Of a DNA stretch of 64,000 nucleotides, positions 17,862-30,970 are shown piece by piece. Under the pieces are notes generated by a model. That model was not told where the DNA came from. It saw only the letters and a list, made by a program, of their open reading frames with translations, and did not search any database. Positions within the stretch are counted from its first letter, which is position 1. Each line of letters starts with the position of its first letter. The position numbers and the translations under genes were made by a program. The stretch comes from Cytophagales bacterium (GTDB lineage Bacteria; Bacteroidota; Bacteroidia; Cytophagales; Flammeovirgaceae): contig JANWWC010000001.1 of assembly GCA_025056215.1 (NCBI GenBank), positions 620,001 through 684,000 on the forward strand, written 5' to 3'.

Positions 17862-18203
17862 CTAGGATTCACGTATCTTAGTGTTTTGAAGGTGTCGTTG
17901 GTGGTCTCGAGAAGTTTTCTTTTCAATATTTCTTTGAAATGCTTCTGTAAGGTCGATATGAGTCTGATTAGCAATGCAGATGAGGACAAATAAAACATCA
18001 GCAAGTTCATCAGCAAGGTCTTTTTCAATCTCAGACGACTTAACGGATTGTTCTCCATACCTTCTCGCCATGATTCTTGCCACTTCGCCTACCTCCTCCG
18101 TTAAAAGAGCCATGTTAGTGAGTTCGTTAAAATAACGAACCCCGTAATTTTTAATCCAGTCATCTACAATTTTTTGAGCTTGTGCTAAGGTCATGGTGAA
18201 CAT
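17862..18203 (-). CDS. MazG-like nucleotide pyrophosphohydrolase
   Basis: 113 residues matching the all-alpha NTP pyrophosphohydrolase (MazG/iMazG) fold: LTEEVGEVAR around residues 34-43 supplies the first Mg-binding glutamates, and ELADVLFVLICIAN around 67-80 the second acidic set. Such enzymes cleave non-canonical (d)NTPs to the monophosphate and diphosphate. It is a short, single-domain version, unlike the two-domain MazG of about 260 residues. It lies 28 bases before the GH28-like gene on the same strand. Confidence 0.88.
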   Translation of the reverse strand: MFTMTLAQAQKIVDDWIKNYGVRYFNELTNMALLTEEVGEVARIMARRYGEQSVKSSEIEKDLADELADVLFVLICIANQTHIDLTEAFQRNIEKKTSRDHQRHLQNTKIRES

Positions 18204-18323: not shown

Positions 18324-19202
18324 TCAACTCAAGTAATTTCGAGTGACGAGTTTGCGGAGCTCTCGCAATTCATCTTCTAAACGCCAATAAGCATTTTTAA
18401 TTTCTTCTAAGGAAGTAGATTCTTCTGGAATTTTTTTAGTAATCAACAAAACAAATTTCCATATTTCCATGATATCTTCTATAGATACTTCATAAGGCTG
18501 ATAAATCATGTTGGTAGATTTCAACAACAAAGTTCCTGTTTTCTCAGAGCGGTTGTATACTTTTTTCAATACAATTCCTTCTGTTCTAGTAACCACAACA
18601 CATACGTCGCCATCTTTAATATCTCGAATCCAATTTTCTACGTATTCTCCTATCACAATAGAGTTGGGTTGAATAGGGAGCATAGAATCTCCGCTAATCT
18701 CAAAAGCGCGGTAAGTTTTATTGGAAGGTAAAAATGGAAGATTAAAGCGAGGGAGCTCTCTTAAATAGCTTTCATCGGCATACCCTCTCGTATATCCTGC
18801 TGATGCTCTTTCGGGAACAAGTTCAATATTTTCATTTCCTTTTTTATCTACGCTAATAGTTAAAATACGCATTTTTTCGCCACTAGCGTATTTTTTTATA
18901 TCTTCTTTATGTTGGATATCTTCTAATTTGTACATTCCTAAATCTATTCGCAAAAGGTGGTCTACTGTAATATTAAAAAACTTTGCAATATAGCTTAGAA
19001 TTTCTAATTTGGGTTCGGCACGACCATCTTCGTAAGAGCATATATTATTGCGCGTAACTTCTTTTGCTTCCGGATCATCTTGCCTGCATAACAAGGTAAG
19101 TTGTTCTGCCAGCTTTTCTTGGGTGAGCTTAGTGGGATAGTTCTCTCGCAGGTAGCGTAAATTTTTGCTAAAAAATTTGTTTAAATCTTTTTTATCTGCC
19201 AT
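18324..19202 (-). CDS. LexA/cI-like autorepressor: HTH plus S24 self-cleaving peptidase
   Basis: 292 residues. The N-terminal XRE helix-turn-helix (about residues 10-85: KNLRYLRENYPTKLTQEKLA, NICSYEDGRAEPKLE) binds DNA. The C-terminal S24 domain carries the nucleophile in SGDSMLP (Ser173) and the general-base lysine in VLKKVYN (Lys213 or 214). A likely self-cleavage bond, Ala135-Gly136 in ERASAGYTRG, sits between the domains as in LexA and phage repressors. This suggests a repressor that inactivates itself on a damage signal through RecA. No phage genes lie nearby. A long inverted repeat sits between this gene and cobA upstream. Confidence 0.85.
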   Translation of the reverse strand: MADKKDLNKFFSKNLRYLRENYPTKLTQEKLAEQLTLLCRQDDPEAKEVTRNNICSYEDGRAEPKLEILSYIAKFFNITVDHLLRIDLGMYKLEDIQHKEDIKKYASGEKMRILTISVDKKGNENIELVPERASAGYTRGYADESYLRELPRFNLPFLPSNKTYRAFEISGDSMLPIQPNSIVIGEYVENWIRDIKDGDVCVVVTRTEGIVLKKVYNRSEKTGTLLLKSTNMIYQPYEVSIEDIMEIWKFVLLITKKIPEESTSLEEIKNAYWRLEDELRELRKLVTRNYLS

Positions 19203-19220: not shown

Positions 19221-19260
19221 GTTAATATTTACAAAATAAACATATATTTCGTAAATTAAC
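19221..19260. promoter_or_regulatory. Inverted repeat, probable operator of the autorepressor
   Basis: TTTACAAAATA (19228-19238) and TATTTCGTAAA (19245-19255) form 11-bp arms with one mismatch and a 6-base spacer. With a 2-base bulge the symmetry extends to GTTAAT/ATTAAC at 19221 and 19260. It lies 18-58 bases upstream of the repressor ATG, where an autoregulatory operator is expected. Confidence 0.55.
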
Positions 19261-19299
19261 AAATAAGAAATTTAAAAAAATGACAAAATTTAATATTTT

Positions 19300-20034
19300 T
19301 TACTCATTTTGTTTAATGAGTTGTTCATATAAACCCACTACTTCGCCTATTACAATAATAGCTGGATTGGTGAGCTTTTGGCTTTGTACTATTTCAACGA
19401 TAGAAGATGCGGTTCCGATAGCGATGCGCTGCTGAGGAGTGGTTCCATTTTCAATAATAGCAATTGGAATAGTTGGTTTGTTGGCTTGCAGATATAAAGA
19501 AACTATTTCTTTAATTCGGTTTATTCCCATTAAGATAACAATCGTGCTATTAGTCTGAATGGCTAATCGGATATCATTAGAAAGAGAATCTGACTTGGAG
19601 GTGCCTGTCATGACCCAAAAGCTTTGATTAGTACCTCTGGTAGTAAGAGGAAGTCCTATTGAGGTAGGTACTCCGATACTACTCGAAATACCAGGAATTA
19701 CTTCTACATGAATTCCATGCGAAGCAGCATACAAAAGTTCTTCAAATCCTCTACCAAATACAAAAGGGTCGCCTCCCTTAAGACGAACCACATGCGAATA
19801 TCGTTCAGCGTAGTACAAAATAAGTTCATTGATTTCATCTTGTTGTAAAGCTGCATATTTATAACGCTTTCCTACAAACACTTTTAAAGCGCTGTTTGCG
19901 TGCTTCAATAAATTTTCATTTACCAAAGCATCGTATAAAACTACATCAGCTTGCTGTAAAGCTTTTATTCCCTTTAATGTAATAAGTTCTTCATCGCCTG
20001 GGCCAGCTCCTACTAAAGTTAGTTTTTTATTCAT
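19300..20034 (-). CDS. cobA: Uroporphyrinogen-III C-methyltransferase
   Basis: About 244 residues of the SAM-dependent tetrapyrrole methylase fold. Signatures are GAGPGDEELITLKG at the N-terminus, KGGDPFVFGRG in the middle (SAM site), PGISSSIGVPTSIGLPLTTR, and a C-terminal ENGTTPQQR. The enzyme methylates uroporphyrinogen III at C2 and C7 to give precorrin-2, the entry to siroheme and cobalamin. The oxidase/chelatase partner (CysG N-terminal type) is encoded separately at 48989-49582. I chose ATG 20034 because the SAM motif starts a few residues later; a longer frame from 20058 is unlikely. Confidence 0.94.
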   Translation of the reverse strand: MNKKLTLVGAGPGDEELITLKGIKALQQADVVLYDALVNENLLKHANSALKVFVGKRYKYAALQQDEINELILYYAERYSHVVRLKGGDPFVFGRGFEELLYAASHGIHVEVIPGISSSIGVPTSIGLPLTTRGTNQSFWVMTGTSKSDSLSNDIRLAIQTNSTIVILMGINRIKEIVSLYLQANKPTIPIAIIENGTTPQQRIAIGTASSIVEIVQSQKLTNPAIIVIGEVVGLYEQLIKQNE

Positions 20035-28571: not shown

Positions 28572-30674
28572 TTAACTAATTTTGCTCCACATGGTTTGTT
28601 TTGATCTAAAAAGCGACTGCTTAAGAATTTGATGTTCGGGCCTTTCTAAAAGAGGGTCGTCTTCTAAAATTTTTTGAGCAATTGCTCTTGTTTCTTGCAC
28701 TAAAAACGCATCTTGAGAAAGGTCTGCAAATCTAAGTTGAAGAATGCCGCTTTGTTGAGTTCCTGCAAGATCGCCAGGACCTCTTAGCTTGAGGTCAGCA
28801 TCAGCAATTTCAAAGCCGTTAGTAGTTCGTACCATAGTAGAAAGCTTAAAACGCGCTTCTTTGCTTATTTTATCTCCTGATATCAAAATGCAGTAAGACT
28901 GTTCTGCTCCCCGTCCGACTCTTCCGCGCAATTGGTGCAACTGGGCTAATCCAAACCTTTCTGCATTTTCAATGACCATCATGGTAGCATTCGGCACATT
29001 GACTCCTACTTCTATGACAGTAGTAGCTACCATAATATGAGTTTTTTGTTCTTTAAAAGCCTGCATTTCAGCTTCTTTTTCATTCGGTTTCATTCTTCCA
29101 TGCAGAATGCTTACCCTGTATTGCGGGAATTCCTGACAAATCACTTCATATCCTTTTAACAAATCCTTTAAATCGGCATTTTGTTCAGATTCTTCTATTA
29201 CTGGATACACCACATACACTTGCCTTCCTTTTTGAATTTCTTGTTTCATCAATCCAAATACGCGCAAACGATTTTTTTCAGAAAACCAAAGCGTGTGAAT
29301 CGGTTTTCTACCAGCAGGGAGTTCATCGATGATAGAAACATCTAAATCTCCGTATAAGGTCATTGCAAGAGTTCTAGGGATAGGAGTAGCTGTCATCACC
29401 AATACATGAGGCAGAGTTTTGCTCTGCTTTTCCCATAACTTGGCGCGCTGAGCTACTCCAAATCGATGCTGTTCATCAATAATACAAAGCCCTAAGTTGT
29501 GAAACTTGACACTATCTTCCAATAAGGCATGAGTTCCAATAATAATTTTCAAATCTCCTTTTTCTAAGTCTTCTAATAGCTTTGTTCGCGCAGTTTTTTT
29601 AGTAGAGCCCGTAAGCAGAGCCATAGAAATGTTGAGCATTTCAGAATAAGGCTTCAGTCCTTGAAAATGCTGAGTAGCTAATATTTCAGTAGGCGCCATT
29701 AAGCAAGCTTGTGCGTTGTTATCAATTGCTAACAACATACAAATAAAAGCTACAATTGTTTTTCCGCTTCCGACGTCGCCTTGTAAAAGTCTGTTCATTT
29801 GCTTGCCCGATTTTAGATCCTGAAAAATTTCACGGATGACTCTTTTTTGGGCGTCAGTCAAATCGAAAGGGAGATAATTTTTATAAAAATGTGTGAGTAG
29901 TTGCGTTTTTTGAAAAACTTGCCCATCGCATTTTTGTTTTCTTTCTGTTTTTAAATGCAACAACCTGAGTTGAATATAAAACAGCTCTTCAAATTTGAGC
30001 CTTGCTTTTGCTTTTTGAAGTTGTGCAATATTTTCAGGGAAATGAATAAACTGAACAGCTTGAGATTTAGAAATAAGCTTGTATTTTTCTAAGATATACC
30101 CTGGGAGAGTTTCTTGAATATAAGGAAGCGCTAACGGAATCAAAGCTTCGAGCAATTTAGAAATTCCTTTGCTATCTAACCCACGCTTTTTAAGCTTTTC
30201 AGTAGTATGATATATAGGTGTAAGTCCTAATTTTGGAGGTTGTGCAGATATTAGAACATCAATTTCTGGGTGAACCATATTAAACTTATCGCCAAAACGA
30301 GTCACCTTTCCGAAAACAATATACTCAACATACGGCTTGATATTTTTTTGTATCCAGCTAATTGCTTGAAACCAAACCAGTTCCATGCTACCAGTTTCGT
30401 CTTTAAAAGTAGCTACGAGCCTTTTTTTTGTGCCTTCTCCTACGATTCGCATTTCTGTAATGCGTCCTTGAATTTGTACACAAGGCATTTCATCTGAAAG
30501 TTGGCAAATTTTAATCAAGCAACTGCGATCTTCATGGCGAAAAGGATAATGCTCGAGAAGTTCTCTGAAAGTAAAAATGCCGAGCTCTGTATTAAGCAGC
30601 ATTGCTCTTTGCGGACCCATTTCCTTCAAATACTCGATTTTAGTTTCCAAGAAAGGAACATTCTTATTCAACAT
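28572..30674 (-). CDS. recG: ATP-dependent DNA helicase RecG
   Basis: 700 residues, the usual length. The wedge/OB-fold domain fills about residues 60-190, the helicase Walker A motif is LQGDVGSGKT near residue 300, the Walker B box is IIDEQHRFG near residue 400, and motif VI lies around LRGRVGRGAEQSYC. RecG reverses stalled replication forks and processes Holliday junctions. The ATG at 30674 gives the family-standard N-terminus; a frame opening at 30737 is possible but longer than relatives. It stands alone on the minus strand. Confidence 0.95.
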   Translation of the reverse strand: MLNKNVPFLETKIEYLKEMGPQRAMLLNTELGIFTFRELLEHYPFRHEDRSCLIKICQLSDEMPCVQIQGRITEMRIVGEGTKKRLVATFKDETGSMELVWFQAISWIQKNIKPYVEYIVFGKVTRFGDKFNMVHPEIDVLISAQPPKLGLTPIYHTTEKLKKRGLDSKGISKLLEALIPLALPYIQETLPGYILEKYKLISKSQAVQFIHFPENIAQLQKAKARLKFEELFYIQLRLLHLKTERKQKCDGQVFQKTQLLTHFYKNYLPFDLTDAQKRVIREIFQDLKSGKQMNRLLQGDVGSGKTIVAFICMLLAIDNNAQACLMAPTEILATQHFQGLKPYSEMLNISMALLTGSTKKTARTKLLEDLEKGDLKIIIGTHALLEDSVKFHNLGLCIIDEQHRFGVAQRAKLWEKQSKTLPHVLVMTATPIPRTLAMTLYGDLDVSIIDELPAGRKPIHTLWFSEKNRLRVFGLMKQEIQKGRQVYVVYPVIEESEQNADLKDLLKGYEVICQEFPQYRVSILHGRMKPNEKEAEMQAFKEQKTHIMVATTVIEVGVNVPNATMMVIENAERFGLAQLHQLRGRVGRGAEQSYCILISGDKISKEARFKLSTMVRTTNGFEIADADLKLRGPGDLAGTQQSGILQLRFADLSQDAFLVQETRAIAQKILEDDPLLERPEHQILKQSLFRSKQTMWSKIS

Positions 30675-30970
30675 AATTAGTAAACTCTCAAAGAATAACG
30701 TGGAATTACATATAACAATTTTAGCAAATTTTTTCAAACTTTTTTAAATTTTAAGCTTTATACAACCTAAACTTTTCGAAAGTTCCACGAAAGCATTGTG
30801 TAGAAACTGCTTAAATCATATCGATGCAAGCCTTAATGTTGTACTTGTCGCTGTACAAATGATTTAACAGAAAAAATTAGGTAGAAAATAAAAAATTTGT
30901 TCTAAAAAAGAGTGCTGTAAGAAATACAGGAAAAAAGGAAGCATTGTAAGAAATGTCCTAAAATTATAGC

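What the first reader, a model, noticed from the sequence alone, without database searches (positions are those of the whole stretch)
19221..19260. Large inverted repeat upstream of a LexA/cI-like repressor
Arms TTTACAAAATA and TATTTCGTAAA with a 6-base spacer, extended by GTTAAT/ATTAAC, lie 18-58 bases before the repressor ATG. The repressor has all parts of a self-cleaving S24 protein, including an Ala-Gly bond and a Ser/Lys pair. Together they suggest an autoregulated SOS-like switch without phage genes, possibly the damage regulator of this organism.
Basis: partly seen in the sequence, partly recalled or inferred. Interest (0 to 1): 0.55.

Follow-up and report, generated by a model that had tools for sequence, protein, structure and literature searches.

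The report
Self-regulated LexA-like repressor with diverged operator
The inverted repeat sits over the promoter of a known kind of DNA-damage repressor of the Bacteroidota, and one arm is the repressor's own likely binding site, altered from its relatives' version, in a genome that has lost the error-prone polymerases such repressors usually control.

Summary
The repeat is real and exactly where stated. Its gapless arms alone are not unusual for such AT-rich DNA (456 of 3000 shuffles do as well); as a bulged hairpin it is (3 of 400). The gene behind it belongs to the published "non-canonical LexA" family of the Bacteroidetes (PMC8565304): CI-type HTH, S24 domain, Ala135-Gly136 bond, Ser173/Lys213, extra C-terminal helix. 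The family's operator is CTAA-N5-TTAG, found upstream of 47 of 80 named orthologues against 37 of 4000 shuffles. A matrix built only from close relatives' operators picks one arm, TGTTTA-TTTTG-TAAATA (19226-19242, minus), as its best match in the 64-kb window, at nearly the relatives' distance from the conserved coding start. So the "large palindrome" is most likely one diverged 13-bp operator (TTTA-N5-TAAA) plus a weaker neighbour, over the promoter. The wider SOS regulon is mostly unsupported: the palindrome is unique, recA has no box, and the genome lacks the Y-family polymerases that 17 of 18 family genomes have. One candidate target, recG, lies in this window (16 of 1000 shuffles). A known kind, with a diverged operator and an apparently shrunken regulon.

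The parts
18324..19202 (-). Repressor, 292 aa: CI-type HTH (residues about 4-90), linker with Ala135-Gly136, S24 domain with Ser173 and Lys213, C-terminal helix 265-291
19221..19260 (.). The inverted repeat of the finding (arms 19228-19238 and 19245-19255, extensions with a 2-base bulge)
19226..19242 (-). Operator O1, TGTTTA-TTTTG-TAAATA (core TTTA-N5-TAAA): rank 1 in the window for a matrix of relatives' operators
19245..19261 (-). Weaker second site O2, TGTTAA-TTTAC-GAAATA, 19 bp from O1; on its own not above chance (61 of 500 shuffles)
19232..19239 (-). Possible -7 promoter element TTATTTTG (consensus TAnnTTTG, one mismatch) inside O1
   Evidence: consensus from PMC7366714
19260..19263 (-). 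Possible -33 element TTTG, 20 nt before the -7-like element
17862..18203 (-). MazG-like nucleotide pyrophosphohydrolase downstream, same strand, 120-nt gap; possible co-transcription
19300..20028 (-). Uroporphyrinogen-III C-methyltransferase upstream, same strand; not part of the switch
30710..30726 (-). Candidate site TGCTAA-AATTG-TTATAT, 35 nt before the recG ATG (16 of 1000 shuffles)
28572..30674 (-). RecG, ATP-dependent DNA helicase; recG is a reported member of the CTAA-N5-TTAG regulon in other species
   Evidence: PMC8565304 section 12

Best explanation
The gene is this organism's member of the non-canonical LexA family of the Bacteroidetes, and it represses itself. A dimer binds a 13-bp dyad (TTTA-N5-TAAA, within 19226-19242 minus) that overlaps the -7 promoter element, probably helped by a second, weaker site next to it; the two near-palindromic sites together make the large inverted repeat. 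On DNA damage RecA filaments would stimulate cleavage at Ala135-Gly136 by the Ser173/Lys213 pair and the promoter would open. The operator has drifted, perhaps together with the recognition helix, from the ancestral CTAA-N5-TTAG, and the regulon seems to have shrunk to the gene itself and perhaps recG. Shown here by sequence: family, cleavage residues, operator position and its conservation. Inferred: binding, repression, cleavage, RecA dependence, damage induction.
For: Model: mean pLDDT 78; HTH like P22 c2, TP901-1 CI and DdrO; S24 domain like LexA, T. maritima LexA Z 11.4 over 119 residues. In 93 other members Gly136, Ser173 and Lys213 align in 93 and Ala135 in 92. Operator: CTAA-N5-TTAG, a motif taken from print, upstream of 47 of 80 loci against 37 of 4000 shuffles. 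Matrix of 8 distinct relatives' sites, window left out: O1 is first of about 128,000 positions in the window; 15 of 3000 shuffles of the intergenic stretch reach it; symmetric version 2 of 500. Distance from the site to the codon aligned with the relatives' start: 23 nt plus 8 codons = 47 nt; relatives 47, 50, 51, 51, 51, with outliers 28, 38 and 63. Extended relatives' motif, up to 1 mismatch, in 7 relative genomes: 11 places (3 for the reversed control), 6 of them upstream of a gene of this family. Four of those 6 helped to build the pattern; the two at paralogues (L177, L183) did not. Dyad series: CTAA-N5-TTAG (L028, L036), CTAA-N5-TAAA (L030, L032, L033, G014), TTTA-N5-TAAA here.
Against: The promoter carries no exact CTAA-N5-TTAG. 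TTTA-N5-TAAA alone is common in AT-rich DNA (365 of 3000 shuffles of the intergenic), and in the genome TRTTTA-N5-TAAAYA has 5 places against 8 for the reversed control. The relatives' degenerate pattern has 19 places against 17 and TGCTAA-N5-TTAGCA 22 against 17, so no regulon stands out. With the symmetric matrix O1 is only 5th in the window. O2 is not above chance. recA has no convincing box. 33 of 80 orthologue promoters lack the exact motif, that of Flammeovirga pacifica among them.
Confidence: 0.8

Rival explanations
1. The conserved element is only the -7 promoter box (TAnnTTTG) with its flanks, and the repressor binds elsewhere or not at all here.
For: Several relatives' sites hold an exact TAnnTTTG (L027, L028, L029, L036, G014; sequences); O1 holds it with one mismatch.
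Against: The right half (TTAGCAA or TAAACA) is outside that box and is conserved; most Pontibacter and Hymenobacter sites (CTAA-N5-TTAG, 74 to 174 nt upstream) hold no TAnnTTTG; the long motif recurs at paralogue promoters.
Confidence: 0.08
2. The whole 40-bp inverted repeat is the functional unit: one large palindrome for a higher oligomer or another factor, or an RNA hairpin at the 3' end of the upstream methyltransferase transcript.
For: Bulged hairpin better than shuffles (3 of 400; z -4.85); some relatives also have strong hairpins there (L030, L031, L036: 0 of 60 each).
Against: No T-run follows and no terminator is called there; no Rfam match; the full palindrome is not seen in relatives, only one arm; two adjacent near-palindromic sites give such a repeat by themselves.
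Confidence: 0.07
3. The repressor answers a signal other than RecA-ssDNA and is no longer part of any DNA-damage response, for example because its classic targets are lost.
For: No Y-family polymerase in the genome and no other S24 protein, hence no UmuD; no convincing box at recA.
Against: All cleavage residues are kept; recG, a reported target elsewhere, has a candidate site.
Confidence: 0.15
4. It is the CI repressor of a decayed prophage.
For: HTH and S24 match phage repressor families (phrog_4, E 8e-17).
Against: Neighbours are cellular genes; orthologues are found across the family and Cytophagales; 0 of 27 pattern stretches in viral contigs encode a relative; phage matches are all under 60% identity (39 records).
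Confidence: 0.03

Closest known systems
Non-canonical LexA of the Bacteroidetes, CTAA-N5-TTAG group (Sanchez-Osuna et al. 2021, PMC8565304; P. actiniarum WP_025606010.1)
   Same: CI-type HTH plus S24 domain, Ala-Gly bond, Ser-Lys pair, extra C-terminal helix, dyad-N5-dyad operator in its own promoter
   Different: Operator TTTA-N5-TAAA instead of CTAA-N5-TTAG; recognition helix RNNIC instead of RSAIS or RSLVG; 12-residue insert before that helix; no Y-family polymerase to control
Elizabethkingia anophelis SOS regulator WP_078407279.1 (same paper)
   Same: Diverged operator (TTAC-N5-GTAA) with the same 4-N5-4 geometry
   Different: Different half-site; lies next to an error-prone polymerase gene, as reported in that paper
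Canonical LexA
   Same: S24 cleavage domain fold; autoregulation
   Different: CI-type HTH here, not winged HTH; different operator
Phage CI repressors and HdiR
   Same: HTH type and domain order
   Different: Chromosomal orthologue across Cytophagales; no phage genes noted nearby

Membership tests
Non-canonical LexA of the Bacteroidetes (PMC8565304) | S24 domain with scissile Ala-Gly and Ser-Lys pair | tested here: met
   PF00717 E 4e-8; A135, G136, S173, K213 invariant in 38 rows
Non-canonical LexA of the Bacteroidetes (PMC8565304) | CI-type (not winged) N-terminal HTH | tested here: met
   HTH_19 and HTH_3 below cut-off by sequence; model residues 5-90 match P22 c2, TP901-1 CI and DdrO at Z 9.6-11
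Non-canonical LexA of the Bacteroidetes (PMC8565304) | Extra C-terminal helix | tested here: met
   Helix 265-291 in the model, pLDDT about 44-69
Non-canonical LexA of the Bacteroidetes (PMC8565304) | Groups with members whose promoters carry the family motif | tested here: met
   Starred set of 16 rows (SH-aLRT 96) with Microscilla, Flexithrix and Flammeovirga orthologues; Pontibacter and Hymenobacter orthologues in the same tree
CTAA-N5-TTAG subgroup | Exact CTAA-N5-TTAG in its own promoter | tested here: not met
   O1 is TTTA-N5-TAAA at the orthologous place. The paper reports diverged sites in this group, so this bars the exact-motif label, not family membership
CTAA-N5-TTAG subgroup | Closer to this group than to the GGA-N5-TCC group by sequence | not tested
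   No GGA-group reference sequence was put in the tree
LexA by function (the paper's definition) | Controls an SOS network (repair, translesion synthesis, cell-cycle arrest) | tested here: inconclusive
   recA no, Y-family polymerases absent, recG candidate; other targets not examined
LexA by function (the paper's definition) | DNA-damage induction and specific operator binding | not testable with these tools
   needs RT-qPCR and EMSA
Canonical LexA | Winged-helix N-terminal domain | tested here: not met
   Five-helix CI-type domain in the model; the E. coli and T. maritima LexA chains align only to residues 122-261, while residues 1-98 match CI-type domains

The most novel reading that the evidence does not exclude
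A lineage that lost all Y-family polymerases and UmuD kept its SOS repressor as a nearly target-free, self-regulating damage sensor. Operator and recognition helix changed together in a symmetric way (CTAA to TTTA on both half-sites; Ser52-Ala53 to Asn52-Asn53 plus a 12-residue insert), with relatives' hybrid CTAA-N5-TAAA sites as the intermediate. The idea that SOS repressors are kept in order to restrain mutagenic polymerases would then not hold here.
Probability: 0.3. Interest if true: 0.5.

Novelty: new member of a known kind. Interest (0 to 1): 0.32.

Why it matters
The family and its autoregulation are in print, so the core is not new. What it adds is a readable path of operator drift (both half-sites changing in step while the N5 spacing stays) in Cytophagales, where the published study left the Cytophagaceae homologues unassigned, and a test case for what an SOS repressor does once the error-prone polymerases are gone.

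Tried and rejected
Large palindrome as a regulon marker: unique in the genome. Searches for a regulon in the window's genome with four other patterns: one search gave 310 places against 224 for the reversed control; the others were near or below control (22 against 17, 19 against 17, 5 against 8). For the 18 places with at most 1 mismatch, gene context was read for all; the three intergenic ones other than the repressor's own (L109, L116, L123) were translated and showed no recognised SOS gene (identities by eye: polyphosphate kinase, aspartate-semialdehyde dehydrogenase). Contexts (19 places) and (4 others) gave no recognised SOS gene either; names there are read by eye, not by a family search.

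Co-regulation of the downstream mazG by a conserved operon: no MazG was noted next to the orthologue in the 15 loci read (by eye). Sequence search of P0001 alone against solved structures: 0 matches. Rfam: 0. Sigma-70 scan: fewer sites than shuffles. The RNA-hairpin and terminator readings were set aside for the reasons under the rivals.

Recognition-helix co-change is a lead only: Asn52 in 0 of 93 others (Ser 81, Ala 4, Pro 3, Lys 2, Thr 2, Gln 1), Asn53 in 2 of 93. The idea that these are base-contacting positions, as in the 434 repressor, is recalled, not tested.

Full report
What was claimed and what is there. The repeat is at the stated place, 18-58 nt before the ATG at 19202 on the minus strand. 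Its arms pair at 10 of 11 positions, and the outer extension is offset by 2 bases. As a gapless repeat it is not rare for the 97-nt AT-rich intergenic (456 of 3000 shuffles). As a bulged hairpin it is (3 of 400). The palindrome is single in the genome.

The protein. P0001 has 292 aa. Pfam gives Peptidase_S24 at E 4e-8 and weak HTH matches. It is the only S24 match in the genome. An AlphaFold model from 38 sequences (mean pLDDT 78.4) shows a five-helix HTH like phage CI-type repressors, a LexA-like S24 domain (T. maritima LexA Z 11.4, rmsd 3.0, 119 residues) and a C-terminal helix; the region around the cleavage site (133-142) is of low confidence. Ala135, Gly136, Ser173 and Lys213 are invariant in that alignment. 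In a wider set of 93 others L036 departs at these sites, with Leu-Gly at the cleavage site and a broken GDSM context.

Its family. This is the family described by Sanchez-Osuna et al. 2021 (PMC8565304; I read the abstract, sections 12, 13, 14, 16 and 17, and passages; not the supplements). They report CI-type S24 repressors that run the SOS response in Bacteroidetes, bind CTAA-N5-TTAG or GGA-N5-TCC, regulate themselves, and in E. anophelis bind a diverged TTAC-N5-GTAA. They could not place the homologues of Capnocytophaga and Cytophagaceae in either cluster. 18 of 18 genomes of the window's family match P0001, one of them (G015) only weakly in the HTH part. Equal contig lengths (801766 and 4904383) identify two of these genomes as Flexithrix dorotheae and Flammeovirga pacifica. 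A quick tree places the window's protein in a starred set of 16 rows (SH-aLRT 96) with Microscilla, Flexithrix and Flammeovirga orthologues.

The operator. The published motif CTAA-N5-TTAG stands upstream of 47 of 80 orthologues against 37 of 4000 shuffled promoters. Near the window's lineage the sites read TTGCTAA-N5-TTAGCAA (L028, L036) and TTGCTAA-N5-TAAACA (L030, L033, G014; L032 with ATGCTAA). A matrix from eight distinct sites of relatives, with the window left out, gives TGTTTATTTTGTAAATA (19226-19242, minus) as the best of about 128,000 positions in the window, and 15 of 3000 shuffles reach it. With a symmetric matrix 2 of 500 shuffles reach it, but it is then 5th in the window. The distance to the codon aligned with the relatives' start is 47 nt; relatives with a site have 47 to 51 nt in five of eight cases and 28, 38 and 63 in the others. 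Compared with CTAA-N5-TTAG both half-sites have changed in the same way, keeping dyad and spacing. The neighbouring site TGTTAATTTACGAAATA (19245-19261) is not above chance on its own (61 of 500). The -7-like TTATTTTG lies in O1 and a TTTG lies 20 nt before it, fitting the sigma consensus quoted in PMC7366714 (one passage read); repression by blocking the promoter is inferred from this.

Autoregulation. In 7 relative genomes a long version of the motif has 11 places at up to 1 mismatch (3 for the reversed control). Six lie 47-61 nt before genes of this family: four are sites that helped to define the pattern, and two are at paralogues that did not (L177, L183).

Regulon. In the window's genome no pattern rose clearly above its control (one search gave 310 against 224). 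recA has no TTTA-N5-TAAA, CTAA-N5-TTAG or TTTA-N5-TTAG within one mismatch in 300 nt. It has two CTAA-N5-TAAA places with one mismatch, and its best matrix score is 8.7, 129 nt upstream. No Y-family polymerase is found (99.5% complete genome), while the 17 other genomes of the 18 searched in the family have one or two. recG, reported as a target elsewhere, has TGCTAA-AATTG-TTATAT 35 nt before its ATG (16 of 1000 shuffles; rank 4 in the window with the asymmetric matrix; not in the first 15 with the symmetric one). uvr, recN, ssb, ruvB and splB genes were not examined.

Verdict. A known kind of regulator with a diverged self-operator and an apparently contracted regulon. No paper on this organism's regulator was looked for by name; the two searches made on LexA in Bacteroidetes showed no other study of Cytophagales operators in their listings.

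Noticed in passing
genome G000 as a whole: No IMS (Y-family polymerase) match in a 99.5% complete genome, while the 17 other genomes of its family each have 1-2.
   Followed up: partly
L036:2998-3789: An orthologue with a perfect TTGCTAA-N5-TTAGCAA operator has Leu-Gly instead of Ala-Gly and FEVQDSG instead of the GDSM context: possibly a naturally non-cleavable repressor, or a sequence error of the MAG.
   Followed up: no
residues 36-48 of P0001 (window about 19059-19097, minus): 12-residue insert between helix 2 and the recognition helix; 86 of 93 relatives have 1 residue there and 7 have 6, Flammeovirga among them.
   Followed up: partly
L177 and L183: Paralogues of the repressor, one of them short (88 aa, HTH part only), carry the same operator and stand back to back with a small membrane-like protein that also flanks the Microscilla orthologue (L178).
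   Followed up: no
window 17862-18203: MazG-like gene follows the repressor on the same strand with no terminator called on that strand between them; no MazG was noted beside the orthologues read.
   Followed up: partly
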